Part shown: piece by piece, positions 38,101 to 64,000 of the stretch
Layout: each line of letters opens with the position of its first letter
Position numbering within the stretch: position 1 is the stretch's first letter
Source: Massariosphaeria phaeospora
Lineage: Eukaryota; Ascomycota; Dothideomycetes; Pleosporales
Reading direction: 5' to 3'
Assembly (NCBI GenBank): GCA_011032825.1
Contig: JAADJZ010000007.1
Coordinates: 620,001 to 684,000 of the forward strand
DNA length: 64,000 nucleotides
Made by a program: the position numbers and the translations under genes
The notes under the pieces: generated by a model
What the model was told of the DNA's origin: nothing
The model's database searches: none
The model's input: the letters and a program-made list of their open reading frames with translations, nothing else

Positions 38101-40354
38101 GGACCCACGACCATGGTAATCTTGGCCCGCGGAACCGTCATGTTAATTGACTGCAGCCAGCCCATCGGTTGCTTTTCCTTGTCCCACCCAAAGTACCCCT
38201 TCTCGATGATGACAGCCTGCGGTCCCATCGAGCCATTTTCTCTTACTTCCAAAGAGAAGCGACTCTTCTGCGACGCATTCGAGTCTTTGTCCGACTGGGA
38301 GTCCAGGTCGGACGCCGACTCAATGCTGTGGCCCATGAACGGGAACCTACGTCTCTCGAGACGAGACTCTGAGGTGAGGAATGTCTGGATTCTCTGGAAG
38401 GATCCAACGCCACCCATGAAGGCAGCTAGCGCATTGATGAGAGATCCTAGTGGCTCTGATAACAGAGTGAAGAGTGATAGTGACGTAAAAACTGTAGCGG
38501 TGTCTAATGTTGTTCTACCATTGCTCTTTTGGGCAATGACGGAGAAGACAGCGAAAGTAAGAATGGGTGATACCACTTGTGAGATGTACGCTACATATGG
38601 TCAGCTTCATTCATATGACTGTGTATGTCACTTACAGAACCCCATGGTCCAGATAAGAAGCTTTCTGAACTTCTTGGAGATGTTAAGCTCATCGATACGT
38701 AGCTGTTGCAAATCGTTGCGCAACACTTCGGTCATACCACCCATCTTCACACCTTTCATTGAGCTTAACATTGCAGTCGTGGCACCGATACGGCGTTCAA
38801 TGGCCTCTAGCCACAATGCTTGACGTTGCATGACTAGGCTCGTTGTGCATAGAGAGCCGAGAAGAGACACTAACACATATTAGAGACTTGAAGGGTACGC
38901 GCACGTACGGACTCTACGTACCAACAGCGACGCCGATGGGGATCGTACACGCGACGCCTAGCTGCCGTTCCAGTAGAAAAATCGCCAAGGCCACCTCTAA
39001 TGCATTCGACCATAGCTCATGCGCGGTCTGCATTCCTGTAACAATGCGCTCAATATCGGCGCTCATTAACGTTATTGATGACGCAGTGTCAACATTAGTC
39101 AAGGCGATATCGGCTGCTTTGTGGTATAACATTGAGATTAGACCACCGCGCATCATGGTGATGAATCGGTAAGTGAGGTGCATATATTGCCCGGTCGAGA
39201 TCTTGTAGAACGTTAGCGAGTGTGATCATGTATGTTGAGTTCTCCTTCGTACCGAAATACCTACGTAGACCAGTACGTAGGCGCCGATCAAACCATAGCC
39301 AATGTTTGAGGTTTGGCTGGTATTTGGTTCGGAGCTATAGGCGATGGCTCTGTTGATTAGGAACGGTTGACAGAAATTGAAAGCGATTAAACATGCACGT
39401 GGCGGGACAACCGCAAGAATAGGCCATATGAGCCTCTTGATCGTGACAGTAAAGAGAGAGTTGGGCCCTCTCTTGGTCGCTACCACACGGGAAAATATTA
39501 GCAAACGAATGGAGACATGAGCTAGATAGACTCACCTTTGTCCCAGGCGGACTGTATCAAATGATGTAGATACTCTGATCGCAAATGCTTGTCCAAATGG
39601 AAGAGATCATCCACCGTAAAAGTGTTCGAGAACCCTTTCCTAAACAGTTCATTCTGCCACCAAAATAATGCGCCACTGTATACACCGCTAACAGCCTCCG
39701 GTGGACAACTGGCGAACTCGGGAAGTAGTATACTTCTTTTCCCCCTAGCTTCGAAGATGGCTAGGAACAATTTGACTCCGACCCGCGTCGTGAAAAGCAC
39801 CGATATTGTCTCAAGGTTGCTGACTAGCGAATAGCTTCGGGATCGAGTAGCGTCAAAGAGGATGGTGACCAAAAGATAAATATTAAGTAGGAATGATGTG
39901 CGAATCGTCCGGAGATGCTCGAAAAAGGACAGAAGACAAAGCACCAATGCCCCAATGAAGTTGAGGATCGCAGAGGGTACTGAAGCACGGTTCTTCGGAA
40001 GTGACTGCTTCACCCAGAGGATGAGAAGCGCGAGATCGAATGCAGCTAGGAAGCTCCATGCTATCTATATGAAATAGTCAGTCGCGCTGTGGTCGGCCAT
40101 AGATTCATCGTATGCGAGGAGTTCCATACCAGTTTAGAGGGCAGAAGCAGGGACCGAGAGACTTTCGTTTGCTTTCTCCACAGATAGAAGATGCGGAAAG
40201 GAGCAATGCATAGAAGTAAGGCAAGCGGAGCTATGGAGAGGATCGATTCCTCGAAAAGCAGCGTAAAATCGAACCCTCCGCGACAACGCTCGCCAGCATA
40301 AGGGCCAAAGCTGTTGTCGACAGAGGCACAAAATTGAGATGAGTCCGACGCCAT
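35127..40354 (-). CDS. ABCC (MRP-type) multidrug/peptide exporter, 1,490 aa
   Basis: Fifteen exons (complement of 35127-35391, 35448-35849, 35902-35982, 36031-36649, 36698-36813, 36865-36936, 36985-37108, 37159-37509, 37577-37739, 37806-38590, 38636-38869, 38922-39201, 39253-39479, 39536-40064, 40130-40354) join in frame to 1,490 residues. The layout is ABCC-like: extra N-terminal membrane helices ([38 protein letters not shown]), TMD1, NBD1, TMD2, NBD2. NBD1 has Walker [10 protein letters not shown] (about 661-669), signature LSGGQSQR (about 750) and Walker B DIVILDD. NBD2 has Walker A GRTGSGKSS (about 1265), signature FSHGQRQLF (about 1371) and Walker [10 protein letters not shown]. It should pump anionic, conjugated or peptide compounds across the plasma or vacuolar membrane. 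Divergence from the NRPS suggests product export or self-protection; that link is inference. Confidence 0.92.
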
Positions 40355-44597: not shown

Positions 44598-45345
44598 ATG
44601 TCCGCGCAAGTTCACTCTTGCCACTTCCCAGCCACCGGTCGCCAAACCAGCAATACCAAACGCCCCTTGTCTGTAAGAGTTGAGTTGAAGCACCTTGACT
44701 TGATTTATCAGCTGCTCGCCGGAGATGAGAGCAGTGGGTCGTTGTCTGATGTCGTTCGGGCAGCTTGGGCGTTATCGTTGCGATGTTACACCGGTTTGAA
44801 CACTGTCTGTTTTGGCTTCAATGAGACTGGAGGCCATCTCAACGGTAGCGAGCCCCAGCGGAATGAGAATTGGGGCTTCACCGACCGTGTCACTGTGATT
44901 CAAATCGACGAAGACATGTCCATCGCGCAGCTCATGAAGCATGTCCAGAGCCCCGAGACAATGTCCGATTCACATGCAGGCAATCTACAATTCAATACCT
45001 CAGTATTGATGCGATATGGGGCTCAGACTGTAGCACCGGGCAAACAACAGCCTAGTACAGCATTGATGATGCACGATAAGGTGAAAATAGTCTAAACTTG
45101 TTCTGGTCAATCCTTTTCTAACTTGCGAAACAGTGTAACATTCGGGTCCTTGTCAAGGTTCTCAAATCTGGAGTCAGCGTCTTTCTCGAGTATAGGAATT
45201 CCTTCATTCCTACGGAGCAAGCGAAGAACATCGGAGGTACACTTGATACAATACTGTCAGGACTGTTGACTTCGCCGGGCGTATCAGCGACTCAAATAAA
45301 CCTTCTCGGGGAGCGCAACCGGCTTCAAATCGAAAGATGGAATTC
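44598..45345 (+). other. NRPS N-terminal truncated condensation domain (C*)
   Basis: The first ~230 residues match only the C-terminal half of a condensation domain: SDVVRAAWALSLRCYTGL and VCFGFNE correspond to the region after the active site, and ERWN leads into A1. The HHxxxDG half is absent and there is no room for it between the ATG at 44598 and these motifs. Such remnants head several fungal NRPSs and are thought not to catalyse condensation. It is split by a 53-bp intron (45081-45133). Confidence 0.85.
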
Positions 45346-48300
45346 TAAGCCTCTGGAACACGTCCAAAAAACCATCCACGATACAATAGCGGAGACAGCG
45401 CGGAATTCACCTGATGAGGAAGCAGTGTGTGCTTGGGATGGAAGTTTTACTTACAAGGAACTCGAGAAGCTTGCCTCTACGCTTGCTTCACGCCTGATTG
45501 AGCTCGGAGTAGGACCTGAGATCATTGTTCCTTTATGTTTTGATAAATCCAAGTGGAACGTGGTTGCTATACTTGCTGTGCTGAATGCTGGCGGTGCATG
45601 TAAGTTGAACACCAATCATGTTGTATTTACATTCGATCTACTCTCGGACGCTGTGCTTGCCATGTTTTTGCTTGCATATCGCACTCCTTCTTTGTTTACA
45701 CTGTTGTAGATGCTGACGTATGCCAGTTTTACCACTCGATCCTGCGGCACCGAAAGAGCGCGTTCAGCATTTGATCTCTGCCGCCAATGCAGGAATCACA
45801 CTTTGTTCGCTAGCCCACGTCGATTCGCTGAGAGACTTTGTCGAGCATGTAGTACCTGTCGATCTCGAATCTATGGAGTCCATGGTGCCAACAGCGCGAC
45901 CAGAATCCAGGGCAGCAAGTCATAACGCTGCCTATGTCATCCCAACGTCTGGAACCACGGGCCAACCAAAGCTCACTTTGTTAGAGCACGGCAACTTTTG
46001 CACCGGCGTGAAAGGACACGCCCCTGGACTTCTCCTGAGCGATACCAAACCATTACGGGCCCTACAGTTTGCCGCACACTCGTTCGATGCATCGATAATT
46101 GAACTTCTGACGCCGTTAATGATCGGAGGCACTGTGTGCATTCCCGACGAACACACAAGATTGAATGACATAGCAAAGGCGATAAATAAGATGGGTGTTA
46201 CCTGGGCTGAGTTGACTCCTACCTTTGTGCGCTTCCTCGAACCATCCATGGTGCCGACATTGACTAGTCTTTGCCTTGTCGGAGAGGCTATGTCCCAATC
46301 GAATCTGGATACCTGGACAAAGATCAATTTAGTCAATGGGTATGTTACCTCGCGGGCGATACGAACCACTTCTCTTACTGATATTTGATATGCAGTTACG
46401 GTCCCAGTGAGTGCGCTGTCGCTTCTGTGGTCAACCCTCGGATGACTTCAGATTCCGATCCCAAGAACATCGGTTTCCCTATCAGCAGCCGCGCTTGGGT
46501 TGTGAACCCTGATAATCAGCATGAGCGAGTACCTATCGGCTGTGCTGGAGAGCTGCTTATTGAGGGTTACATAGCTGCTCGCGGGTATCTGAATGATGAT
46601 GAAAAGACAGCACAGGCGTTCATCCATGATGTTACATGGGCCCCTGAACGAAAGTTTCGAGGTTATCTTACAGGAGATCTCGTTACTCAAAACCCGGACG
46701 GCAGCTTCAACATTGTTGGGCGCAAAGATAGTCAAGTGGTGAGCATAATCGTTCCACAGTGTAGATTCCGCTCGCTAACAATTTTCCCTAGAAATACCAC
46801 GGCCAGCGAATTGAATTACTCGAGATTGAACATCACATCAATCGAGACCCTTCAATTAAGCATAACCTGGTAGTACTACCTAAATCCGGTCTCTGCAAGG
46901 AACGCCTTGTTGCCATCGTGTCTCTCGCCCATCATTCTGAAGATGACACCCCTCTCGGTCTCTTTGATGGGTCCGAAAAGCTCTCTGCTAATCGCGAGAT
47001 TGAAGCCATCCGCTCTCGCATCGCTGAACGACTACCTCTCTATATGGTACCGACAGTCTGGATTGCCGTTGCTGCGCTACCCCAGCTTACGTCTGGAAAG
47101 CTCGACAGAAAGCGCACAATGCAGTGGCTTACTAACATGCCCGCTGATGTCTATCAGCGCGCAATACCAGCTGCTAAGGATACAGAATCAGCAGGCGAAC
47201 CAACCACGAAGGTTGAGGCGACACTGAGGTCGGTCTGGGCTCACGTTCTAAACCTACCTGAACAACAAGTACCTCTTGATCGGCCATTCCTCTCGTTAGG
47301 CGGTGACTCTATATCTGCAATGCAAGTCATGGGTTATTGCAGAAAGGAGGGTCTCGGGCTTGGGGTGCAGGAGATTCTTCGAAGCAGGTCAATCCCCCAA
47401 CTTGCAACATCAATCAAAGACATCCAATCTGCTTCTGCCGACATCAGCGAGGAATTCGAGAAGCCATTTGGTTTGACACCTATCCAGTCGCTCTGGTATC
47501 AACTTCCAAACCAAGGTCATGGCCACTTCAACCAATCTTTCTATCTTCGTGTCAAGCGCAGGACGACAGAGTTTGAGTTCCGCTCGGCGGTGCAAAAACT
47601 CGTTTCCCGACACTCCATGCTGCGAGCTCGGTTCTCATTCTCTGACGAGCATGGGTGGCAACAACGAGTCACTGAAGACGTCAACAACTCATACCGCTTT
47701 CGGTATAGAACAGCGCTCAATAAAGCAGAAATTGATGTTGCAATAGAGGATTCTCAGAAATGCTTGAATCCCACTACTGGCCCGTTGTTTGCTGCGGATC
47801 TGTTCGAGGTCGGTGGTGAACAACATGCCTTTTTAGTCGGTCATCATCTGGTCATCGACCTCGTCACATGGCGACTCCTGCTTGAGGAGCTGGAAGAGAT
47901 CCTCAAGGACGGCGTTTTACTTCCGCCTTCGCTACCATTTCAGAAGTGGGCACAACTGCAACAAGCACATGCTAGCACTCTACAACCTGACAAAGTCGTG
48001 CCTCCAGTAGACATCCCACCATTGGATTTTGCGTATTGGGGAATACAACATCAGGACAACACATATGGCAATGCCGGCCACGAGAGCTTCGAGCTGGATG
48101 CCGCTGCCACCGCAGTTTTCATGAACGACTGCCATTACGCTTTGAACACAGAACCCGTAGAAGTACTACTCGCTTCCTTGATTCAATCATGGTCGAATGT
48201 CTTCGATGACCGGGCTCTCCCGGCCTTCTTCAATGAAGGCCATGGGCGGGAGCCTTGGAACACGGACATCGATGTGTCACGTACCGTGGGCTGGTTCACG

Positions 48301-51300
48301 ACCGGTAAGTCCTGAATGTGTCCGCACTACCAAACATTGCTGATTGTATTTGGTAGTGTACCCAATCTTCGTCAACCCCTCCGAAGACCCAATTGACACT
48401 GTTCGGCGAGTCAAGGACTTCCGCAGACAGATACCGGCAAATGGTCGACCGTACTTCGCAAGCAGATGTCTCACTAAGAATGGCCAAGAGTATTTCGAGA
48501 CTCACTGGCCGATGGAGATATCTTTCAACTACCTAGGTCAATATCAGGTATTCTTAACGCACAACCCTTCTGTTTATGACACTAATTCATTCTAGCAACT
48601 TGAGCGCTCAGATGCGTTGCTCCAGCCACTCGAAAGCATGGCTGGAGAAACGAGAGAGGCAGGTGGCACGGCTGACGTCGGCTTCGATGCCCCCCGGTTT
48701 GGCCTGTTTGAGGTTTCTGCCATCGTGTTCAAAGGACGACTGAAATTTGCATTCACATTCAATCGCCACATGCATCATCAGGAGCGCATCAAGAACTGGG
48801 TATCTGAATGCCAGCACACATTTGTGCAGATGATCGAGAGATTGGCTGTATCACCTCCAACACCGACCTTGAGCGATTATCCATTGCTGTGCCTGACCGA
48901 AGAGCGTTTTCAATCCATGCTTCAGCGTCTTGCAAAGATTGGCATTCCAGCAACAGCAATTGAGGATGCATATCCCTGCTCCAACATGCAGGAAGGACTG
49001 CTTCTCTCGCAGACGAAAGACACTGGCTTCTATGCTGCGGTCACATTTTACGAGCTGAAGCTATCTAACGGTTTACCGGATTGGCAAAGAGTTGCAGAGG
49101 CCTGGAAGCAGGTGACTAAACGCCATCCAGCCCTGCGAACTATCTTCCTCGAGAACATTGGTGGAAACGATGGCCTATATGATCAGGTTGTTCTCCGTCA
49201 AGCAGACACTAACATCGTCCATTTCGAGTGTATCGACGAACAGGATGCACTTCGTATAGTCGAGAGACAACGTACAATCACCTACGAAACCGTGCGAAAC
49301 CCCCCTCATCGGTTTACCATTTGCAGTACGCCCGAGCACAGGGTCTTCTGTTGTTTGGAAATCAGCCACGCCATTATGGACGGTCATTCTATGAGTACCC
49401 TGTCTAGCGATCTCCGGAAGGGCTACTCTGGCCATCTCCGAGGGGATGGCCCACTCTACAGCGACTACATTGCGTACCTCCAAAATCAGCCACAAGAGAC
49501 AAGCCTCAATTATTGGAAGTCATATTTGAGCGGCAGTGAAGTGTGTGCCTTCCCGATCATGAACGACAACTTGGTGGTGAGAAAGGAGTTGCGCTCTATG
49601 CGGTTGGACTTCGGAAACATCAGCATCATGGATCTCCAGACGTTCTGTAATTCGAATGGTGTGACGCTTTCCAACATCTTCCACACTGCCTGGGCTCTTA
49701 CGTTGAGTCTCTACGTCGGAAGCAACGATGTCACCTTTGGCTACCTGACTTCGGCTAGAGATTCTGAAAGTATCCACCGGGTGGAAGAGATGGTAGGGCC
49801 CATCATAAACACTCTCGTATGCCGCGTCAAGTTTTCTGAGTCATCACAATGCCTATTGGATGTTCTCCGAGAAGTTCAGAGAGACTACTTGGAGACTATA
49901 CCTCATCGCCATACCTCTTTGGCTGAGGTACAACATGCTCTAGAGCTTGCGGGAGCAAATCTGTTCAACACCGCTCTATCCTATCGAAAGCTACCCCCAG
50001 TATCTCCGACTGACGATGTTGGTGTAACGCTGGTAGAGATTGCCCCAATTTACGACCCTACAGAGTACCCGGTTTCAGTTAATATTGAAGTATCGGAAGA
50101 AACCGCCATGGTCGACCTGGACTACTGGACTGATCATCTTTCCGAAGGACAAGCCGCCAACGTTGCGAGCACGTTTGTGCGCGCGTTGGAGAACATCATC
50201 TTCAACGCTCAGCATAAATACTCTGCTCTTGATCATTTGAGCGGTAAGCATTGGCAACAAATACAAAGCTGGAACGTCATGCCCGATACCATCAACGAGT
50301 GTGTCCATCACAGGTTTGCATCTTGGGCTGTATCACAACCCGATGCACCTGCGGTGCGTGGGTTTGATGGCGACTATACCTATGCTGAACTGGATGCCGT
50401 CACTGAGCGTCTGGCTCATCACCTTGTCGAACTCGGTGTTGGACCGGAAGTTTTCGTCCCTACTTGTTTCGACAAGAGCTCGTTCACGGTGATAGCTATG
50501 CTTGCTGTACTAAAAGCTGGTGGAGCGGCTGTTCCCCTCGACGCGAATCATCCAAAGCCTGCTTTGGAGTCTCGGGTTGAGGATACGGAGGCTCAAGTGG
50601 TTCTTACATCAGCTGCACGCTCTGAAATCTTCGAAGATGTCGTTCCGGACGTAGTCATAGTCGACTCGGTCTTGCTCGATGATCTGGAGCACGTACAGCT
50701 TGCCTCAGCTTGCACAACAGTTGAACCGCATAACCCAGCATTTGTCATTTTCACAAGTGGCAGTACCGGAAGACCCAAGGGTGTTGTCCTTGAGCATGCA
50801 GCAATGGTCACCAGTGCAAACGCTCACGGCTCTAACCTTGGTATTGGCCCCAGCTCGCGTTTCCTCCAGTTCGCCAGCTATACGTTTGACAATTCCCTTG
50901 AGGAGATGTTTACGACGCTTCAGAGAGGAGGCTGTGTCTGTGTACCGTCCGAAGAGCAGCGCATGAACGACCTTGCCAGTGCTATCGCTGAACTGGATGC
51001 GAACTTCATGGATCTCACGCCAACAGTTGCTGCGCTATTGAACCCGATGGATGTGCCGACCATCAAGGGCATGGCACTGGGTGGTGAAGCCCTTACCAAA
51101 GCTGTTGTTGACCAGTGGAGCACACACGTTCATCTACATGGCCAATATGGTCCCAGTGAAGCTTCCATTAACTCAGCGTGGAAAGACTTCAAGCATGGCG
51201 GGGAACCCACCAATATCGGACGGGCTATCGGCAGTGTCTCCTGGCTTGTTGATCCCGAGAACAGGAACCGCCTCGTACCCATTGGATGTAAAGGGGAACT

Positions 51301-54300
51301 TCTTATCGAAGGTCCGATCCTTAGCCGCGGCTACCTGAAAGATCTGGAAAAGACGAAGCTAGCATTCATCGAAGATCCGGAATGGGCTCAAGCGAGTGGT
51401 GTGACTGGTCGCAGGTTTTATTGTACTGGAGATTTGGTTCAGTACACTTCGGAAGGCGAGATGATGTACCTCGGCAGGAAGGATAGTCAGGTGAAGGTAA
51501 ATATCACGATTCGAAGCCTCCGATTATTAGGTGTTAACGTAAAATCAGTTGAACGGCCAACGCATCGAACTTGGCGAAATCGAACATCACCTGAAACTCA
51601 ACCTACCAACCGACGCTCAATCAGCAGTTGAGCTTGTCAAGTTCTCCGGTGCAAAGGCTATGAAGGCCTTAGTCGGATTCCTCTGTTTGTCGGACCAGCC
51701 TGTGGGCGCGGTGAATGATACCCCTTCTTCAATCGCGGAGATGACTGACTCTGTACGTTCCGTGGCTAAAGAGATGGAAGTTGCGCTGTCCAACACGCTT
51801 CCTGTTTACTACGTCCCCACTATGTTTGTACCTATGACCAGCATGCCCATGACGACTTCAGGGAAGCTAGACCGTAAAGCTCTGCGCCAGCTAGCCCAAG
51901 CCGTACCGGAAGATCAACTGCAGACATTCAGGCTGGTAGGAAAGAGTGGCCGAGCGCCAACTGGGCCAGCTGAGATCACTCTCGCCGGTCTATGGAGTTC
52001 TGTTCTCAACCTGGAACCTGATTCGGTCGGCGTGGAAGACTCATTTTTTCGCCTCGGTGGCGACTCAATCGGTGCTATGCGACTAGTCACGGCCAGCCGC
52101 AAGGAGGGTGTCATCCTGACCGTAGCGAATATCTTCGCACAACCCAAGCTCGTCGATATGGTCGCGACAGCCACCGTGCTTGGTTCCGATGATTTGTCGG
52201 CAGAGCCAGAGCCAGATACAGTTCCATTTGAGTTATTGCCTGAAGATTCCAGACGCCGCGTTGTTGACTTCGCAGCGTCTGAGTGTGGTGTCTTCCCTGA
52301 CTCTATCGAAGATATCTATCCATGCAGTCGCCTTCAGGAGGGTCTCATTGCACTCTCTACTAAGGAACCGGGTGCATACGTGGCCGAAACCATATATCGT
52401 CTGCCACCAAACATTGATCTCGAGAAATTTCAACAAGCCTGGAACAGGGTCGCTGCCTCAGAATCTATACTCAGAACTCGAATCATCTACACTGAAGATT
52501 GTGGCTTTCTCCAGGTTGTCATTCGAGACGAAATCGTGTGGCACGCTGTTGCCGAATTGCAAGACCTTAACGAAACGCATCGACATCTACCAGCGAAGCA
52601 TGGTGGTCCGCTCACTGGCTACACTATTGTCGGGGTAGATTCTTCGTCGCCTTTCTTCGTCTGGACTGCGCATCATGCTGTATACGATGGCTGGAGCCTG
52701 CCAAGCCTACTCTCCAAGGTTGAAGCTTGCTACGGAGAGCCCACACAAGAGCCACTAGTATCCGTGCCGTATTCACGATTCATCAAGTACCTTTATACTA
52801 TCGATGAAAAGGTATCGGACGATTTCTGGCTTTCTACTCTGGGAGATCTCACTGCTCCGCAATACCCCCAGCTGCCAAGCCCAGATTACAAAGTTCAAGC
52901 TTCGAGTCAATTACTCCATCGGGTTTCAATTACGCGAAAGCTTGGGATGGAGATAACTATGCCCTCCATGATCCGAGCTGCGTGGGCGTTGTTGCTGGCG
53001 ACCTATTCTGGCTCTGACGACGTTCTTTGGGGCGAGACGAACAGCGGTCGAGAAGTTCCAGTGCCTGGCATTGAAGACATTATCGGTGCGACGATCGCAA
53101 CCTCACCTACTCGCGTGAAGCTCAATCGCCAATTGACAATCAAAGAGTATCTGCAACATGTCCAACAGCAAAGCTCAGCCGCCTTACCATTCCAGTTCGC
53201 TGGGTTACAGCATATTCGCAAACTAAGCTCCGATACAGCGGCCGCGTGCGAATTCCAAAGCCTTCTCGCCATAGGTGCGGGCGATAACATGAAAGATCCC
53301 GAGGGTGGTTTGTGGGATTTACAGAGCACCGGTACAATGGGTACCAACTTCTTCAACTATGCTCTCATTTTTAACTGCATGGTTGAGAAGAACAGTGTGC
53401 AGATTGAAGTGCATTATGACAACCAAATTATCCAGACGTGGCTTGTGCAGCGCCTTCTAAAGCAATTCGACTTCATCTTAACTCGCTTCAATGCCCCAGA
53501 ATTCGCCGACCAGGCCCTGGGAGAGTTCGTTCTGCTCAACGAGGAAGATCAGGAAGTCATTTCCGCTTGGAACGACCGGCCCGTCAACGTCATCAACAAA
53601 TGTGTCCATAATGTCATTTTCCAAGATCAGGTCATTCTCCGACCTTCTGCAATCGCGCTTGAAGCGTGGGATACGGATACCATGACTTATCGGGAACTGG
53701 ACGAGCGTGCGACACGATTAGCCTTTCAACTGGTCTCCCTAGGAGTGAAGCCACAAACCTTCGTGCCGCTTTGCTTTGACAAATCTGGCTGGACAATTGT
53801 GTCGATGTTAGCGGTACTCAAGGCGGGAGCTGCGTTCGTTCCCCTGGATTTCGAAGCGCCTATCCTGCGACTACGTGAAATTGTAAGCGACGTTGACGCG
53901 AAGTTGATACTTTGCGCGCCACAGTATGAAGAACTTTGCCAATCGATACCGTGCAAAACGTTAGCAATCGACAGAGATACCACCGAACGTCAACCAGGCC
54001 GTCTGTTTACCTTACCACACGTACCGAGTGATACGCCGGCATATGTGATCTTCACCTCTGGTTCGACTGGAAAGCCAAAAGGTGCGGTCATCAATCACAC
54101 TTCATGGGTGTCCAGCTCGAGCGCGTTTGCCCCAGTCATGGGAATTTCCGAGGCATCTAGGGTTCTCCAGTTCGCCTCATATACCTTTGACGCTTGTCTC
54201 ATAGAAATTCTCAGCACCTTGATGCTCGGTGGCACCATTTGTGTTCCCGACCAGGCATCTCGAACCAACGATCTACCCGGAGTAATCAACAGGCTCAACA

Positions 54301-57300
54301 TCAATTGGGCTACTCTCACTCCCTCGGTGGTTCGAACAATGCAACCTTCGCAGGTACCTCAGCTCAAAGCCCTTGTCCTGGTCGGAGAGGCCATGTCACA
54401 ACAAGATCTTTCTACATGGGCCGATCGTGTCATGCTCGGCAATGGTTATGGGCCAACTGAGTGTAGTGCTATAGCTACTGTCAACATTATGACACCTACG
54501 ACCAGGCCCAACAACCTTGGCAAAGCGGTGACCGCAAGAGGCTGGATAGTGTCAAAGGATAACCATAGCGTTCTAGCACCACTTGGCGCAGTTGGTGAGC
54601 TCCTACTGGAAGGTGGCGGTGTCGGGGCCGGGTATCTAAACAACGCGGAGAAGACCGTTCAAGCTTTCGTCAATGAGGTTAGTTGGACTCTAGGTACGGG
54701 TGGCCAAATTGCATCCAACGCAAGACGATTCTACAAGACTGGCGACCTTGTCAAGTACAATGAGGATGGAACAATGTTGGTAAGAAAAGACAGACTTACT
54801 CTAAGTAACCGTGCTAATGTCATTCAAGTATCTTGGGCGCAAAGATTCCCAGACCAAGGTTCGCGGGCAGCGACTCGAGCTGTCGGAGGTCGAACATCAT
54901 CTTATGGATGACTCTTCAGTTCAAAATGCGCTTGCAGCCGTGCCGACATCTGGGCCTTGCGCAAAGCGTCTTGTGGGTGTCGTCTCGCTACAGAATGTTG
55001 CTATAGACCGCGCTTCAGGTATGTATTGTGTTCTCACTTATTGCATAGTTTACTAACGAAGGTACGCGACAGGCCAGGAATTGCAACTCTTGCCTACCGA
55101 AACTGCCTCGTTCAATATTAGCGCTATTCGAGATCGTGTCTGCGAGCGCCTACCTTCCTACATGATCCCTTCGCTTTGGATTGCAGTCTCCGGCTTTCCC
55201 CTAATGCCATCTGGCAAGATGGACCGGAGACGAGTTGTGCAATGGCTTGATCGAATGGACACCGAGACTTATCGTGCGATCTCTACCCTTGGCCTGGAAA
55301 CTGCCAGAGACGAAAGCACTGATGTTGAGAGCAAGTTGCAGGCCATTTTTGCGAACGTCCTCAACCTTGCCGCCGAAGACGTCCGTTTAAGCCAATCTTT
55401 CTTGCACCTAGGTGGAGATTCTATTGCTGCCATGCAAGTCTCTTCGCAGTGCCGCGCCCAAGGTCTCGCGATCACTGTCCAAGACATCATCAGGTCCAAG
55501 TCCATCGCGGTGCTTGCTTCAACAGTGTCTATCACCAAGGACGACGACGCACACGCATCGAAGCCTAAAGAGTATGATTTGCCCTTTGACCTAGCGCCTA
55601 TTCAAAAGGTGTTCTTTGAAACCGTTGGCGAAAGTTACAACCACTTCAATCAAAGTGTTGTACTCCGTCTCGCACGATCATTCGACCTTGAAGAAATCCA
55701 AGCAGCATTGGCATCGTTGGTCTCAATTCACCCCATGTTGAGAGGACGCTACGCCAAAGACGAGTCCAAGGCTTGGCGACAGCGAGTTGAGAAGGACACC
55801 AAAGCATCGTTCAGACTGCGACATCACCGCATTAGCACGGGCAACGACGAAACAATGCGACCTATCATTGACGAAAGCCAGGCTACTTTGGACATACATC
55901 ATGGGCCGACGTTTTCTATTGATCTGTTCGACATTGATGATGCATTCTCCCAGGCTATTGCTCTTGTAGCCCACCATTTGGTAGTCGACGTGGTGTCCTG
56001 GGGTATCGTTTTGGAAGATCTCCAGAATATCCTCAATGGTATCACCCCACCATCCCAGAGCCTACCGTTCCATGCCTGGCAACAACAACAGACCGAGCAA
56101 GCTAAGCAAGATACCGCTCACAAAGTCTTGCCCGTAGCTGGAATCGCGCCAGCCGACCTGGACTACTGGGGGATGAGTACCAAATGCAACATCAATGCCG
56201 ATGTCATTACGGAAGATATAGAGCTCAGTGCTAAGGAGTCCATGCTACTGTTGGGGGCCCACGATGCGCTGGCGACAGAACCGTTGGATGTCTTCATTGC
56301 AGCGCTTCTAGAATCCTTCCGCAAGGTATTCTCGGACCGATCTACCGTCACGATCCATAACGAGGGCCACGGCCGGGAGCCGTTCAACACTAAGCAGGAC
56401 TTATCTCGCACTATCGGATGGTTTACCACTCTGACACCCATCCACCTACCTGTGTCTCCGGAGGACCCAACAGACATCATAAGTACCATCAGATGGGTCA
56501 AAGATCTCCGGGAGCGAATCCCAGACAAGGGTCGACCTTATTTCGCATACCGCCTACTCACAGAAGAAGGCCAAGAACGGTTTGCTGGCCATTGGCCTGC
56601 CGAGGTAACATTCAATTACCTTGGTAGAATGCAGAATCTGGAACGCAAAGATGCCTTACTTCAGAAGTTGGATGGCATCATGACGAACGATGTTGGGCCC
56701 GATGTGCCCCGCTTTTCTCTCTTCGAGGTCACTGCCTTGGTAGCAAAAGGCACGATCAAACTTTCGTTTAGTTTCAACCGTCACATGAAGCGTCAGCCTG
56801 AGATCAAACAATGGATCTCCGAATGTCGCCAGACACTAGTCGATGCCGTGGAGCAGCTCCTGCAAGTACGACCAGAGCCTAGTCTAAGTGACTTCAAACT
56901 TTTACCATTGTCCTACAATGGTATGTCAAGGCTGTCGGCTTCATTGCCCTCTGGGACGACACTGGATGCGATCGAAGATATATATCCTGCATCCCCAATG
57001 CAACAGGGACTCCTCTTGTCGCAGTTGAAACATCCCGAGTTCTACGCTTACCATTGCATTTTCGAAGTTCGCCCGACGGACATGGCGACGCCCGTCAATC
57101 CAAGGAAGCTCGCCGAGGCATGGCAGGTTGTCGTACACCGACACCAGGCGCTACGGACTGTTTTCATTGAGAGCTTATCGAAGACTGGTCTCATGGATCA
57201 GGTAGTGTTCAAAGACAGAGCAGGCAGGATAGCATGGATGCTCGACTGTGGGGATGAGGATGTCGCCCAGCTTCTAAGGTCTCAGCCGGCTGTCGACTAT

Positions 57301-60300
57301 CGCGACTTTCACCCTCCACATCGCCTCACTATCTGTAAGACAAAGACCGACAAGGTGTGGGTGAAGCTGGAAATGAGCCATGCAATCTGCGACGGGAGCT
57401 CGATTCCGAACATTCTTAAAGACCTTGCACGAGCATACGAAGGAAAATTATCTCGATCGGAGCCGGGTCCACTATACAGCGACTTCATCGCTCATATTCT
57501 CTCTAGCTCCCGAGATGCGGATGTCAACTACTGGAAAGCTTATTTGTCCGGGGTGGAGCCATGTTTCTTTCCCAATCTCAATGACGGCAAGCCTGGGCCA
57601 CACGAGCTTGGTTCCTATGAGGTCCACCTAGCCGACCCTCACGCGATACAGACTTTCTGCAAGAAGAACGGAGTTACTCTATCAAACGTCCTTCAACTTG
57701 CATGGGCTCTTGTGCTGCACTGCTACGTAGGAACATCGGATGTTTCTTTCGGTGTAGTAGCTTCTGGACGTGATATCCCTGTCCGGAACATCGAGGAAGC
57801 AGCTGGCTGCTTTGTGAATATGCTCATCTGCCGACTCAACTTCTCGGATGACACCCGGGTTCATCAGCTTCTTGAGGCGTTGCAAACTGATTCCGTGAAT
57901 GCCATGGCTCACCAAAGCTGCTCGTTAGCAGATGTTCAACACGAGCTTCAGCTACCGTCTCTTTTCAACACTGTCTTCACTTACCAGAGACGCCAGCTGT
58001 CGCGTGACCCGCACAAGACTGCTCTCATGTACGAGAATGTCGAGGCCGCAGATCCGGGCGAGTACCACATCACTGTCAACGCCGATGTCTCTGAAGAAGG
58101 AACGACGGTGGACTTCGGCTTCTGGAAAGACAAAATATGTCCTGCACAAGCAGAGAACATGATTGAAACCTTCGAAAAGATTATGTCTGGTATGGTTGCT
58201 AGTCAAGATCAAGACCTTACCATTGGTGATCTCGATCTCCTTACTTCAGGTAGTCTTGATCAGATCTTGGAGTGGAATCGGGACCTTCCACTCCCTGTTC
58301 GTCGATGTGTACATGACCTTGTGCAAGAGCAAGCCCTATTGAGACCTCGTACGGCAAAAGCTATCGACGGCTGGGACGGTATCTTCACGTACCAAGAATT
58401 CGACGAAGTGACCAACCGACTGGCCGTTCATCTTCAGGCTATAGGCGTCTCTACCGAAACATTTGTGCCAATTCTGTTCGAGAAGTCGTCATGGGCTATT
58501 GTTGCTATGATCGCCATCATGAAGGCTGGCGGTGCTTATGTTCCGCTCGACCCGAAACATCCACCTGGCCGCCTGCGTCAGCTCATCGGAGATGTAGACG
58601 CCAAGGTCGTGCTTTGTTCAAGAAACTATCATCCAAAGGCGAGCGAAGTTGCAAATACTGCAGCTATTATTGATCGACAAGCAGTTAACAAGCTGCCCTT
58701 AGCTAAAGGGATGAAGCCAGTCTCAAATGTCACGCCCGATAACGCAGCCTACTGTTTGTTCACGTCAGGTACGACAGGCACTCCCAAAGGAACTATCATT
58801 CCACATCAATCCTTCTGCACAAGTGCAAATGCTTTCACCCAGCTAATGCACATGGACGCCACATCCCGCACTTTCCAATTTGCCAGCTACACGTTTGACG
58901 CCAGCTGTGCAGAGATTCTGGCAGCTCTCACCGTCGGTGCCACGATCTGTGTTCCTACCGAGGATGAAAGAATCAACGACCCAGCAGGTGCTATCCGAAG
59001 ACTCAAGGCCACGTGGACTTTCCTGACGCCCTCCGTCCTTGGCACCATTAAACCTGAAAGGGTTTCTTGTCTGAAGACGCTCGTGGCAGGAGGAGAAGCC
59101 GTGCCCGGACCTGTGATCACAAAATGGGGTGCAAGCACCTGCCTCATGAACGGTATATCCAAATCTAAATGTAATCCTACAATCATTTACTAACTCTACA
59201 CAGGTTATGGGCCTACCGAAACGACAGTTTTTGCTGTTACATGCCACAAGTCTACACTTGACAGACAACTCATTGACACAGATCCGGGCACCATTGGTAG
59301 TCCCTCGGGATGCCGGTTGTGGGTAGTACACCCACGAAATCACGATAAGCTGGTCCCGGTTGGTGGTGTCGGCGAGCTGATTATCGAAGGATATACCGCC
59401 GCTCGTGGCTACCTCGGAGATGACGCCAAAACCGCCAAGGTCTTCATCAGCAACCCAACATGGGCAGCGACATTAGCCTCAACAGACGAAACCTTCTTCA
59501 CTACACGCATGTACAAATCCGGAGATCTTGTACGCTACAACTCCGACGGTACCATCAGCTACATTGGCCGCAAAGACACCCAAATCAAACTCAACGGCCA
59601 GCGAATCGAGCTTGGTGAAATCGAGTTCCATGTCAAGAGCAAGTTCCCCGAAGGTGTTCAGTCTGCCGTTGAGTTAGTGGCGCCTGCAAGCCGCAGCTCC
59701 GCTAAAGCTTTGGCCGTTTTCTTCTCCCTTGATGATGAATATCAACAAGGGTCTCCAGAACTTGTCCAGCCCGCATCATCCGAGCTCCCTGCCGCCGACG
59801 AACTCCTTCTCCCTATGAGCGATGAGCTAAGAGACATGTGTAAAGCTATGGAGAATGCTCTCGCCGGGGTGTTGCCAACGTACATGATTCCGTCCATCTT
59901 CTTGCCGATTGCCAAAATGCCGTGGACTACGGCGAGCAAACTCGACCGCAATCGACTGAAGAATCTCGTGCAGAACCTTACCAAAGAGTCCATGGCACCA
60001 TATAGACTTACGAGTGCCATGAATAAACGTCAACCTGTTACAGCTGCCGAGAAGAAATTACAGAAGCTCGTGTGTTCAGTTTTGAATCTTCCAGCCTCTG
60101 CAGTGGGGGCCGACGATAGCTTCATCGTAAGTACCCATGATAAAAACTACGTGTTCTCCTGGCTAACCAAGAATAGCGACTCGGTGGAGACTCGGTAGCA
60201 GCTATGCGACTCGTCTCTGCGGCACAGGCAGAGCATATTGAGCTCTCGGTGATGGACGTCTTCAAGCAACCCAAGCTGTCTGATTTGGCGGCCAAATGCA

Positions 60301-63300
60301 ACATAGTTGAAAGGGATGCAAACAGTGAACAGGGTATCGAGCCCTTCCAACTCCTGCGCAAACCACTTTCAAGGTCTCAGATACTGGACGAACTTTCCGA
60401 GCAATGCCGCATTTCCAGAGAGAAGGTCCAAGACGCTTATCCAGCTAGTCCACTCCAAGAAGCGTTCATCACGCTTTCAAGTAAGCAACCTGGTGCTTAT
60501 GTCGCTCAGCACATTCTGGCGCTCTCCCCATCTGTCGATCTCAAGAAATTCAAGGCGGCGTGGGAGAAAGCGGTACAAGAAATCGATCTCATGCGCACTC
60601 GCATTGGTCAGATCCAGTCGGGTACCTTCATCCAAGCTGTTTTGGTTGAAGATCCAATCAGCTGGCATGAAGTGGACACGATCGAGGAAGCTGAAGGAGA
60701 AGCGACTCAGATCCCAGCACATCTTGGAGGCCAATTGGCAGCGTACACCATTGTGCGCACTACATCCAATGAGCGCTACTTTGTTTGGACCCTGCACCAT
60801 GCTCTTTATGATGGGTGGAGTATTCCAATCATGCTACAGCGGGTTGAGCAACTGTACAATGTAGGCCTGTCGGAGATGGCTACAACCCCTTACACCAAGT
60901 TTATCAGATATCTGATAGAATCGGACTCGGCGGCATCAGCACAATTTTGGAAAGACCACCTAGCCTCCACAGCGGCTTATCAGTTCCCACAGCGATTGCA
61001 CTCAGTCTCCGACCAAGCTCCAAACGGCCAAGTCTTGCAACATACGGCCAAATTCGCTCGCCATCGACACAGTGACATAACACCCTCCACAGTCATCAGA
61101 GCTGCATGGGCCTTGGTTCTTGCCGCATATACTGGCAGTAATGATGTGGTGTTTGGTGAAACGCTTACTGGGAGGGACATTGCTGTTTCTGGTATAACTG
61201 AGATATGCGGCCCAACCTTGACCACGGTGCCGACCAGAGTAAATGTCGACCACAGTGCTACAGTACTCCAGCTTTTGCAGAGCATTGCGAGAAATGCTAC
61301 CGATCGCATTCCTCATCAACATACTGGGCTATCGGAAATCAAACGAATCGATCAGGACACAGCAGCCGCCTGCGACTTTCAGAATCTGCTAGCCATCCAA
61401 ACCGGCGGAGAGGAGCCATCGGAGTCCATGTGGTCTTTCCATAACACTGGAATACAGACAAACTACTTCACGTACCCCTTGGTCATTGAATGCAAGACGG
61501 CCCAGACAAGTGTCGATATTTCGGCGTACTACGACGAGAATGTCCTCTCGACCTGGCAGACACAGCGTATCCTGTACCAATTGGAATCAGTCCTAGCGCA
61601 ACTCAACTCTGTTGGCAATATCCGCGACATATGCATCTTCAGCAATCAGGATATGCAGCTCGTCCGTGAATGGAATGCTCGAGAGCCTGTCGTTGTTGAT
61701 GATACGATCCACTCCCTATTTTCCAAACAGGCGTTGTCCCGACCTTCTGCGGCCGCCGTATCCGCATTCGACGGCGAGTTCAGCTATGCCGAGTTGCATA
61801 ACTTATCCTCGCGTCTCGCCGAAGACTTGATAATATTAGGAGTTGGGCCAGAGAATCTGGTACCTCTTTGTGTTGACAAGTCGCGCTGGGCCATTGTCGC
61901 TATTATGGGCATTATTATGGCCGGCGCAGGATATGTACCCTTGTCTCCCGAACATCCTATCTCGCGACACCGCCAGATTATTCAAGATTGCAACGCTACC
62001 GTTCTCCTGTGTTCTCCTGCCTACGAAACCCGTTTCACCGATTTAGTCAGCAAGGTGTTCGCAGTAAACGAAGCTTCTATTCGGCAGCTTCCCGTTCGGC
62101 AGCGTCACGTGCCAGTGCGAGCAAAGAGCAATAACATCTGTTATGTGCTGTACACTTCTGGCAGCACTGGTGTCCCCAAAGGCGTTGTCATCGAGCATCA
62201 AGCTATTGCATCAAGCTCCGAGGCTATCTGCAAGGCGCTACATATGAAACCTACCTCGCGAGTCTTCCAGTTTGGATCGTTCGTCTTCGATGCTTCAGTC
62301 ATGGAGATTTTGGCCACTCTAACCTGCGGTGCAACAGTTTGCATTCCTTCAGATGAGGAACGCACTACGGACATCACCTCGGCCATTAACAAGTTGAAAG
62401 TGACTTGGACTTGTCTCACCCCCTCTGTCGCCAATGTAATTGAATCGCCAGAATCGGTTCCCACTCTGCAAACTTTCGCATCCGGCGCCGAGGCGCTTAC
62501 TCCTGAAACGATCAAGAAATGGAGTTCTGGAGTACAGCTTCTGAACGCGTATGGTCCAACTGAGGGCGCTGTTGTTGCTGTTGCGAATGACCAAGTATCT
62601 AATCAACAAGATCCTTCCAATATCGGACATATGCTACAGAGTGGAAGGGCTTGGATCGTCAACCCAGATGACCCTGATCTACTCGCACCAATCGGAGCTG
62701 TTGGTGAGCTTTGTATTGAGGGCCCCCTCCTTGCTCGAGGCTACCTCAACAATAGTGCGAAGACTGCGGAGGCGTTCGTGGACTCTCCAGCGTTCATCAA
62801 CGACTTTTCTAAGGCGGCAAGCACCAAGATCTATCGCACTGGTGATTTGGTTCGATATGGCCCAACCGGCTCCATCCACTACGTTGGACGCAAGGACAAC
62901 CAGGTCAAACTTGCGGGTCAGCGGATGGAGCTGGGCGAAATAGAACACCATCTGCATGCAAACGGTAGCATCCGCCAAGCAGTTGTATTGATGCCAAAGT
63001 CAGGTTCGGGTAAGAGAAAGTTAACTGCCGTCATCACGATGCACCGCAAGCCTGCAGATAAGTCTACCCACGCGCAGGCCTGGAACAGTATTCTCGGTCA
63101 TGCCGATATTCTACGCCAAATCAACGAGGCAAAGAGCAGACTATCGGACTTGGTACCAACTTATATGGTGCCAACCGTGTGGGTCGCCGTCAATGATATT
63201 CCGACTCTGGCCTCATCCAAACTTGACAGAAAGCAAGTCGCGGCCTGGTTCGAGAACATGGATGAGGAGGCCTACCGACATATACTGGATTTGGAGAGCA

Positions 63301-64000
63301 GCATCGATCCTGGCGTCCCTGCTACGGAGACAGCCAAGATACTTCAGGGCATCTGGGCGCAGGTGCTCAACCTCCCTGTTGGAAATGTCAAACTGAACAA
63401 GCCATGGCTCTGTAAGTACTCTCATGTATCCGATTCATTTGGAGTGCATAACCTGATTACTTCTAGCACTTGGTGGGGATTCCATCACCGCCATGCAGCT
63501 TCTGGCCCGCTGTAGGAAAGAGGGTATCAACCTGACCCTTAATCAAGTCCTTCGAAGCAAATCAATTTCACATCTCGCCGAGTCCATCGGTACTGGTTCT
63601 GGATTTGATCACGGTATGGAGCAGACGGACAAACCATTCGATTTGTCGCCCATCCAGCAATTATACTTCAGATCTATCGGTGACGACAAGGTCTCTCATT
63701 TTAACCAGTCCTTCACGCTTCGAGCGTCACGTCAAATCGATCAGACTGTTCTCAAGGGTGTTATGGACGCCATTGTAAGATGCCACTCGATGCTTCGCGC
63801 ACGTTTTTTCGAGGACGAAAACGGAACCTGGAGACAGACTATACCAAGTGACTCGAAGAGTGCTTATAGTTTCTCGGTGATCAACCCTCCTGTCATCTCC
63901 GGTATAGTCGAAATTATTGCAGACACGCAGAAGAGTTTGAACATTGTCGACGGCCCTGTTTTCGCTGTCAATCTGTTCAATATTGGCTCCAGCGACCAAG
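44598..64000 (+). CDS. Giant nonribosomal peptide synthetase, at least 5 modules, 3' end outside window
   Basis: Thirteen exons so far (44598-45080, 45134-45599, 45727-46339, 46396-46738, 46792-48304, 48357-48547, 48596-51496, 51549-54779, 54829-55018, 55073-59152, 59204-60126, 60177-63411, 63467-64000+) keep one frame for 6,234 residues. Domain order: truncated C, A1-T1-E1, C2-A2-T2, C3-A3-T3-E2, C4-A4-T4, C5-A5-T5-E3 (cut by the window edge). Every T domain has LGGDS with the phosphopantetheine Ser. A domains carry TSGT/STG loops, YGP(S/T)E and (S/G/T)GDLV motifs. E domains carry HHLVxD and NEGHGREP. A domains activate amino acids as adenylates, T domains carry them as thioesters, E domains convert L to D, C domains form peptide bonds. 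It is cytosolic and needs a phosphopantetheinyl transferase. The alternating E pattern predicts a D-L-D-L-D start. Release domain and final length are unknown. Confidence 0.96.
45346..48850 (+). other. NRPS module 1: A1-T1-E1 (initiation, D-residue)
   Basis: A1 (about 45346-47150) has a TSGTTGQPKL loop, where the last residue is Leu instead of the usual Gly, YGPSE split by an intron after the preceding Gly, YLTGDLV and SGKLDRKR. By alignment to GrsA-PheA its pocket residues read D-A-I-E-C-V-G-V-A plus Lys. T1 Ser codon is at 47308-47310 (LSLGGDSISAM). E1 (about 47461-48850) has GHHLVIDLVTW (47841 on), FNEGHGREPWN and FNYLGQ, all E-domain hallmarks. With no functional upstream C domain this is the loading module, giving a D-configured first residue. 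Confidence 0.85.
48860..52190 (+). other. NRPS module 2: C2-A2-T2 (L-residue)
   Basis: C2 (about 48860-50270) follows E1. Its active site reads EISHAIMDGHS (near 49361-49390), keeping the second His and the Asp-Gly but with Ser for the first His, as in fungal condensation domains that take a D-donor. A2 (about 50280-51875, intron 51497-51548) has TSGSTGRPKG, YGPSE, CTGDLV and SGKLDRKA. Its pocket reads D-N-E-D-A-G-Q-I-N; acidic residues at positions equivalent to 239 and 278 are seen in bacterial basic-residue codes, so a positively charged substrate is possible. T2 Ser codon is at 52065-52067. No E domain follows. Confidence 0.85.
52225..56875 (+). other. NRPS module 3: C3-A3-T3-E2 (D-residue)
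   Basis: C3 (about 52225-53575) has the full HHAVYDGWSL motif (His codons at 52671-52676), as expected when the donor is an L-residue. A3 (about 53580-55240, introns 54780-54828 and 55019-55072) has TSGSTGKPKG, YGPTE, KTGDLV and SGKMDRRR; pocket D-A-I-T-V-V-G-A-I. T3 Ser codon is at 55420-55422 (LHLGGDSIAAM). E2 (about 55580-56875) has AHHLVVDVVSW, NEGHGREPFNT and FNYLGRMQ. Confidence 0.85.
56880..60310 (+). other. NRPS module 4: C4-A4-T4 (L-residue)
   Basis: C4 (about 56880-58285) again follows an E domain and again has the Ser-His form, EMSHAICDGSS (near 57372-57396). A4 (about 58290-59960, intron 59153-59203 just before YGPTE) has TSGTTGTPKG, KSGDLV and ASKLDRNR, with Ser instead of Gly before the catalytic Lys; pocket D-A-A-F-V-G-G-V-F, suggesting a hydrophobic substrate. 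T4 is split by an intron (60127-60176) immediately before RLGGDS; Ser codon 60192-60194. No E domain follows. Confidence 0.85.
60340..64000 (+). other. NRPS module 5: C5-A5-T5-E3 (D-residue, cut at window end)
   Basis: C5 (about 60340-61675) has LHHALYDGWSI (60795 on). A5 (about 61690-63240) has TSGSTGVPKG, AYGPTE, RTGDLV and SSKLDRKQ; pocket D-A-M-C-A-G-A-V-V, hydrophobic in character. T5 is split by an intron (63412-63466) just before LGGDS; Ser codon 63481-63483. The final stretch (about 63620-64000) begins FDLSPIQQLYF and HFNQSF, matching the starts of E1 and E2, so a third E domain is under way at the window edge. Confidence 0.85.

What the first reader, a model, noticed from the sequence alone, without database searches (positions are those of the whole stretch)
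44598..64000. NRPS with strictly alternating epimerization: predicted D-L-D-L-D peptide
E domains occur in modules 1, 3 and 5 and not in 2 and 4. Seen directly: HHLVxD, NEGHGREP and FNYLG motifs after T1 and T3, and an E-like start (FDLSPIQQLYF, HFNQSF) after T5. Known: such domains epimerize the carrier-bound residue. Inference: the product begins with alternating D and L residues. Strict D/L alternation favours unusual beta-helical or flat-ring peptides with membrane or self-assembly activity and is uncommon in described fungal NRPS products.
Basis: partly seen in the sequence, partly recalled or inferred. Interest (0 to 1): 0.88.

Follow-up and report, generated by a model that had tools for sequence, protein, structure and literature searches.

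The report
Fungal alternating-D/L peptide synthetase, NRPS4 family
This is one intact giant fungal enzyme gene of a known, widespread family (relatives of Fusarium NRPS4, maker of fusahexin), so its alternating D- and L-amino-acid pattern is real but is the usual design of that family rather than a new one.

Summary
Observation confirmed: E domains follow modules 1, 3 and 5 only, and they are true epimerization domains by motif, profile and tree. The gene runs on past the window: my spliced model (44598-69331, 15 exons, 7,978 aa, no stop) reads partial C-A1-T1-E1-C2-A2-T2-C3-A3-T3-E3-C4-A4-T4-C5-A5-T5-E5-C6-T6-C7-T7, with no sixth A domain.

Apart from the N-terminal C remnant and the last T, this is the domain order of a Fusarium graminearum NRPS4-type protein, and in trees each C, E and A domain groups with the same-numbered one there. 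Published work names NRPS4 as maker of fusahexin, an alternating D/L cyclic hexapeptide, with module 5 used twice. The likeliest product here is a cyclic D-L-D-L-D-L hexapeptide whose residues 5 and 6 are the same amino acid; side chains should differ from fusahexin's because all five pocket codes differ. Likely role, from relatives: surface hydrophobicity.

So strict alternation is a shared feature of a known family, not a rarity. Of 187 listed homologs 172 share the core; 29 of those stop at C6 and may make five residues. Side finding: the last carrier lacks its attachment serine in all 75 sequences that have it.

The parts
44598..64000 (+). NRPS4/NPS4-family nonribosomal peptide synthetase gene, first 78% of it; the coding region ends at 69331 in window numbering, outside the window
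   Evidence: Spliced model of 15 exons and 14 GT-AG introns, 7,978 aa, no stop; contig continues; share computed
44607..45271 (+). N-terminal remnant of a condensation domain (46 bits, no HHxxxD site found by my pattern)
45374..47142 (+). A1 adenylation domain, pocket code DAIECVGVAK
   Evidence: last K assumed, not read
47182..47400 (+). T1 carrier domain (LGGDS)
47461..48859 (+). E1 epimerization domain
48956..50215 (+). C2 condensation domain; groups with C4 and C6, which also follow E domains
50303..51908 (+). A2, code DNEDAGQINK
51942..52157 (+). T2 carrier domain
52302..53501 (+). C3 condensation domain; groups with C5 (both follow modules without E)
53604..55257 (+). A3, code DAITVVGAIK
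55297..55509 (+). T3 carrier domain
55579..56874 (+). E3 epimerization domain
56968..58212 (+). C4 condensation domain
58309..59979 (+). A4, code DAAFVGGVFK; holds intron 59153-59203
60019..60284 (+). T4 carrier domain (split by intron 60127-60176)
60423..61616 (+). C5 condensation domain
61707..63260 (+). A5, code DAMCAGAVVK
63306..63573 (+). T5 carrier domain (split by intron 63412-63466)
63631..64000 (+). E5 epimerization domain, cut by the window's end (to 64947). Beyond it, in window numbering: C6 65053-66306, T6 66802-67065, C7 67568-68788 (cyclizing type inferred), T7 68915-69133 (no serine)
35450..40064 (-). ABC transporter gene in pieces (two ATPase pieces, one membrane piece, a TMD0 trace below its cut-off), divergent from the synthetase; possible cluster partner
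   Evidence: gene model not built, link to the synthetase inferred

Best explanation
An intact NRPS4/NPS4-family synthetase of a dothideomycete, probably a pleosporalean fungus (inferred from its nearest homologs). Shown by sequence: five A domains, six serine-bearing carriers, E domains after T1, T3 and T5 only, a C6-T6 half-module without an A domain, a terminal C7 nearest to TqaA, and a last carrier-like domain without its serine. Inferred: A1-A5 load residues 1-5; E1, E3 and E5 turn residues 1, 3 and 5 to D; C2, C4 and C6 accept a D donor; A5 also loads T6, so residue 6 is the L form of residue 5; C7 closes the chain head to tail. Product: a cyclo(D-L-D-L-D-L) hexapeptide, stereochemically like fusahexin but with other side chains, exported perhaps by the neighbouring ABC transporter and serving the fungal surface (hydrophobicity, spore wall).
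For: Complete model without a stop. Nearest homologs, BLASTP of the whole model: Lojkania enalia P0001 73% over 7,996 columns, Zopfia P0004 77% and Alternaria P0013 64% from about T1 on, F. graminearum P0160 43% over 7,065 columns, residues 56-7008 (listings). Lojkania is in Pleosporales, Zopfia in Dothideomycetes incertae sedis. Domain order of P0160 and of F. poae FpNRPS4 (P0166) is contained whole in the window's. C/E tree: for each of the nine positions the window's domain lies in one group with the same-numbered domains of Lojkania, Alternaria, Trichophyton, Clonostachys and P0160, group support 84-100. Tree of 62 A domains from 13 proteins: five groups, one per position, support 94-100, least possible number of changes. 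C2/C4/C6 form one group, C3/C5 another. C7's best solved relatives are TqaA chains, recalled as a macrocyclizing terminal C domain. Fusahexin's alternating structure and its NRPS4 origin with module 5 used twice: PMC12340964, PMC10967133 (passages). Relatives: NPS4 loss reduces colony hydrophobicity in Bipolaris maydis as cited in PMC12675215 (passages); ChNPS4 and hydrophobicity (PMC2823734, section 28).
Against: No product is known for this species. The paper that assigned fusahexin (Westphal 2021) was not held and not read. P0160 is called 'unnamed protein product [Fusarium graminearum]' by its source; I take it for NRPS4 because it is 65% identical, over the part searched, to P0082, named 'Nonribosomal peptide synthetase 4 [Fusarium piperis]', beside P0163 and P0166, also named NRPS4, not from a locus tag. 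The BLASTP match to P0160 stops before T6-C7; C7 is tied to it by the tree only. Pocket codes differ from P0160's at all five positions, and the window's A4 code looks like P0160's A5 code, so which residue goes where is open. T6 could be loaded by another A domain. 29 of 187 homologs end at C6, so the C6-T6-C7 tail is not universal. The Fusarium cluster is described with four genes in one paper and as a two-gene cluster in another; here only an ABC transporter was found nearby. The homologs were chosen by likeness to this query or to P0082.
Confidence: 0.85

Rival explanations
1. A pentapeptide D-L-D-L-D: C6-T6 adds nothing, residue 5 is the last, and C6 or C7 releases it.
For: No A domain called between C6 and C7; only five A domains; 29 of 187 homologs end at C6 altogether and would be expected to stop at five residues.
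Against: In the window T6 keeps its serine, as it does in all 148 proteins that have T6-C7, and it is the best conserved carrier between window and Lojkania (94% against 66-79%). The Fusarium protein has the same A-less C6-T6 and its published product has six residues.
Confidence: 0.08
2. One or more E domains are silent, so the product is not strictly alternating (E5 carries NETHGRES instead of NEGHGREP).
For: G-to-T change in E5, where P0160 has NEGHGREP; that fungal E domains can be inactive is recalled.
Against: The histidine and glutamate recalled as catalytic are present in all three. At the third E domain NE[S/T]HGR[E/D] is common in the family: at least 66 of 174 homologs with exactly three E domains (33 NESHGRD, 22 NESHGRE, 9 NETHGRE, 2 NETHGRD; the eight commonest forms were printed). 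C6 is of the same group as the other C domains that follow E.
Confidence: 0.08
3. A broken gene (pseudogene) because of the in-frame stop at 59191-59193.
For: One stop in frame within A4.
Against: It lies in a canonical 51-base intron between NG and YGPTE; the whole model is open and 73% identical to Lojkania from end to end.
Confidence: 0.02

Closest known systems
Fusarium graminearum NRPS4 (fusahexin synthetase), taken to be P0160
   Same: Domain order A-T-E-C-A-T-C-A-T-E-C-A-T-C-A-T-E-C-T-C; position-by-position grouping of C, E and A domains; A-less C6-T6; terminal C7
   Different: 43% identity over residues 56-7008; all five pocket codes differ; the window protein has an extra C-terminal serine-less T7 and an N-terminal C remnant, while P0160 ends 20 residues after C7
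NPS4 of Cochliobolus and its Alternaria homologs (AbNPS2)
   Same: Alternaria protein P0013 has the same order from T1 on, 64% identity, and a serine-less T7
   Different: P0013 starts at T1-E1 without A1; ChNPS4 is described as tetramodular (PMC2823734, section 28); the window keeps A1. That P0013 is the NPS4/AbNPS2 gene is inferred, not tested
TqaA terminal condensation domain (role recalled)
   Same: Best solved relative of C7 (132.7 to 128.5 bits over four distinct chains, next 70.2)
   Different: TqaA closes a far smaller product (recalled); C7 here is followed by a serine-less T7

Membership tests
NRPS4/NPS4 orthologue family of Ascomycota (filed here) | Core order T-E-C-A-T-C-A-T-E-C-A-T-C-A-T-E-C with A1 before it | tested here: met
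   same in P0160 and P0166
NRPS4/NPS4 orthologue family of Ascomycota (filed here) | Each C, E and A domain groups with the same-numbered domain of the F. graminearum protein | tested here: met
   61 rows; 62 rows; quick trees, SH-aLRT support only, lowest group support 84 (E1)
NRPS4/NPS4 orthologue family of Ascomycota (filed here) | Role in surface hydrophobicity | not testable with these tools
   needs a mutant
Fusahexin synthetase in the strict sense (not filed as this) | The pocket codes of the Fusarium enzyme (Ala, Leu, aThr, Pro, Leu in print) | tested here: not met
   none of the window's five codes equals P0160's
Fusahexin synthetase in the strict sense (not filed as this) | Alternating D/L cyclic hexapeptide product | not testable with these tools
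   needs chemistry
Fusahexin synthetase in the strict sense (not filed as this) | Partner genes beside the synthetase (ABC transporter; in one account also glycoside hydrolase and MFS) | tested here: inconclusive
   ABC pieces at 35.4-40.1 kb, orthology not tested; no glycoside hydrolase or MFS among the stop-to-stop pieces scanned, which are only part of those present
Epimerization domains | HHxxxD and NExHGRE sites; grouping with known E domains and not with C domains | tested here: met
   for all three; for E3 and E5

The most novel reading that the evidence does not exclude
The terminal T7 is a pseudo-carrier kept by selection for a job without phosphopantetheine: it docks on the acceptor side of the cyclizing C7, where a loaded carrier would sit in a chain-lengthening module, keeps water and stray amines out, and so favours ring closure over hydrolysis or further elongation. 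All 75 T7 sequences have a hydrophobic residue (I 53, L 13, V 7, M 1, F 1) at the serine site while T1-T6 of the 148 proteins compared have serine throughout. The 73 members that end at C7, the Fusarium ones among them, would be those that do without it.
Probability: 0.15. Interest if true: 0.55.

Novelty: new member of a known kind. Interest (0 to 1): 0.3.

Why it matters
It shows that strict D/L alternation is not an oddity of this genome but the plan shared by 172 of 187 listed homologs. By source name these include Alternaria, Parastagonospora, Cadophora, Trichophyton, Talaromyces, Fusarium, Clonostachys, Diaporthe and lichen fungi. Pocket codes vary from member to member while the E/C pattern stays, so selection seems to hold the backbone's handedness more tightly than its side chains (inference). 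That makes a testable point: if surface hydrophobicity depends on stacked flat rings, different side-chain sets with the same D/L pattern should all serve. The serine-less last carrier is a separate small puzzle.

Tried and rejected
Pseudogene by the in-frame stop in A4: rejected, it is intronic in my model.

Swap of whole A4 and A5 domains, suggested by the pocket codes: rejected by the A-domain tree, in which every position is its own group. Swap of an A subdomain: the window's A4 is nearest to Alternaria A4 in every stretch among the seven domains compared; Alternaria A5 is slightly nearer to the window's A4 than to the window's A5 in two overlapping stretches, about residues 213-288 (49 against 46% and 55 against 48%), a weak hint that was left open.

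A first version of the pocket-code script misplaced two positions and was replaced (then 45). Which alignment positions make the code rests on recalled GrsA motifs. Codes of some rows stay incomplete ('?'); those of the window and P0160 are complete but for the last letter K, which was set, not read.

Loss of A1: 14 of the 172 homologs with the common core start at T1. For at least one (Zopfia P0004) the protein starts inside what is the end of A1 in the window, so truncated gene models are possible; not settled.

The third protein search, the structure tools and the scans of public contigs were not used.

Literature: seven searches. One for cyclic hexapeptide + alternating + fung + epimerization domain found no paper. 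That T7 is not described rests only, of which I saw the first 10 of 27 and of 80 listings. Papers: passages of PMC12340964, PMC10967133, PMC10455296, PMC2823734 (and its section 28), PMC7513725, PMC12675215, PMC4283610, PMC3554632 and PMC11677700; no paper was read whole. The NPS4 of Clonostachys in PMC7513725 has eleven modules and is another gene.

Full report
What is there. I read on in the same contig and built a spliced model from GT-AG introns with fungal branch sites, checked against the reading frame and conserved motifs. It runs from 44598 to 69331 in window numbering (the window ends at 64000), has 15 exons and 14 introns of 46-127 bases, and gives 7,978 residues without a stop. The in-frame stop at 59191-59193, inside A4, lies in a 51-base intron at 59153-59203.

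Domains. With profiles built from the window's own domains the order is C(partial)-A-T-E-C-A-T-C-A-T-E-C-A-T-C-A-T-E-C-T-C-T, in agreement with the Pfam scans of the separate ORFs (the T6 piece had no Pfam match in the ORF scanned and was read by eye and by my profile). E domains follow T1, T3 and T5 only. No A domain was called between C6 and T6; about 165 residues of linker stand there (residues 7003-7169).

Are they E domains? Yes, by four tests. Motifs: each has HHLVxD, NExHGRE and FNYLG. TIGR01720 matches the three and none of the six C domains given; only E5 reaches its curated cut-off; NCBIfam models are made for bacteria and archaea. Nearest solved relatives of E3 and E5 are tyrocidine synthase 2 and bacitracin synthase 3; E1 was not tried. 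In a tree of 61 rows (the window, five homologs, three C rows of other synthetases of this genome, three bacterial E, one bacterial C) E and C are split by one branch at 99. Against full comfort: the tree is of the quick kind with SH-aLRT support only, two rows are long, two of the three other C rows of this genome sit nearest to the E side though outside it, and the E and C labels of the homologs come from profiles seeded with the window's own domains.

Which family? The first protein search listed 120 of 885 matches, the second, with a Fusarium NRPS4 as query, 120 of 586; together 187 distinct proteins. Of these 187, 172 have the core T-E-C-A-T-C-A-T-E-C-A-T-C-A-T-E-C and 158 also have A1. 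Of the 172, 143 go on with T6-C7 and 29 end at C6; 129 have A1, core and T6-C7 together. Of the 15 without the core, nine end after T5 with no third E domain, and the rest are shorter, doubled or interrupted calls. Since all were picked for likeness, this shows constancy within the family, not how common it is among fungal synthetases. P0160 from F. graminearum (7,639 aa) and P0166, named FpNRPS4 (F. poae), have the order of the window protein without the last T and without the N-terminal C remnant. For all nine C and E positions the window falls in one group with its same-numbered counterparts (support 84-100), and 62 A domains of 13 proteins fall into five groups by position. I read this as orthology along the whole length, although the BLASTP match to P0160 covers residues 56-7008 only (43%). 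In both trees odd and even positions go together (E1/E3/E5; C2/C4/C6; C3/C5; A1/A3/A5; A2/A4), as expected if a two-module unit A-T-E-C-A-T-C was repeated; this is inference.

Product. For NRPS4 the published product is fusahexin, described as alternating D and L (PMC12340964, passages), made by five modules of which the fifth acts twice (PMC10967133, passages; the NRPS4 assignment also in PMC10455296, passages). The original paper is not in the library and was not read. By the same logic the window's product is a D-L-D-L-D-L ring in which residues 5 and 6 share one amino acid. Ring closure rests on C7, whose nearest solved relatives are four TqaA chains (132.7 to 128.5 bits against 70.2 for the next). 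The pocket codes are DAIECVGVAK, DNEDAGQINK, DAITVVGAIK, DAAFVGGVFK and DAMCAGAVVK against DVTLVGCVVK, DNADAGCVNK, DAMLVGAVVK, DAMLVGAVIK and DIGFVGGVFK in P0160. I do not name the residues from them.

Function. Relatives affect wettability and spore wall: NPS4 loss in Bipolaris maydis gives a wettable colony, and the authors of a 2025 study find the hydrophobins not essential and Nps4 the likelier cause (PMC12675215, passages); ChNPS4 hydrophobicity and an Alternaria homolog's conidial wall role (PMC2823734, section 28). In F. [quoted passage not shown] An ABC transporter lies some 4.5 kb upstream on the other strand; whether it belongs to the pathway is not tested.

Two features of the family that stood out. 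First, T7: in 148 proteins (the window and 147 homologs ending in T6-C7 or T6-C7-T7), the attachment serine is present in every T1-T6 counted (145, 147 and four times 148) and absent in every T7 (75 of 75, always I, L, V, M or F). The 73 that end at C7 include Fusarium, Clonostachys and Diaporthe by source name, and a few lichen MAG proteins. Second, A1: 14 of the 172 begin at T1, among them Alternaria and Parastagonospora, which fits ChNPS4 being called tetramodular, though cut-off gene models may account for some.

Verdict. The claim of rarity does not hold for this gene: it is an ordinary member of a known, widespread family with a known alternating product. Interest is modest and lies in the varied pockets on a fixed backbone and in the serine-less T7.

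Noticed in passing
68915-69133 in window numbering, beyond the window (L011): Terminal T7 has LGGDIMGL: no phosphopantetheine serine; no serine in 75 of 75 T7 sequences compared.
   Followed up: partly
45374-47142 (A1): 14 of 172 homologs with the common core begin directly at T1-E1, so their first residue would need loading from elsewhere; some may be truncated gene models.
   Followed up: partly
P0060 and 28 other homologs: 29 of 187 homologs (about 6,500-7,000 aa, one named Pes1 of Usnea florida) end at C6 without T6-C7: expected to make five residues, D-L-D-L-D.
   Followed up: no
58309-59979 and 61707-63260 (A4, A5): Pocket code of A4 (DAAFVGGVFK) resembles that of Fusarium A5 (DIGFVGGVFK), though the whole domain is A4 by tree.
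   Followed up: partly
66307-66801 in window numbering, beyond the window: Linker of about 165 residues between C6 and T6, where an A domain would stand, with stretches much alike in Lojkania (DWGNLIRSIV..., AADMVAAAGVMATEALKSVPPDFVEKKL).
   Followed up: no
35450-40064, minus strand: ABC transporter pieces with a weak TMD0 trace, divergent from the synthetase.
   Followed up: partly
G000:C24:282930-296767, minus strand: Another large synthetase locus of the same genome with six condensation-domain matches, five of them in one open frame of 4,010 aa.
   Followed up: no
25480-30459, plus strand: Open frame of 1,659 aa without a Pfam match at E<=0.01.
   Followed up: no
P0040 (Trichophyton equinum), third E domain: VHHVCVDMVSW and no NExHGRE match by my pattern: this relative's E5 may be altered.
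   Followed up: no
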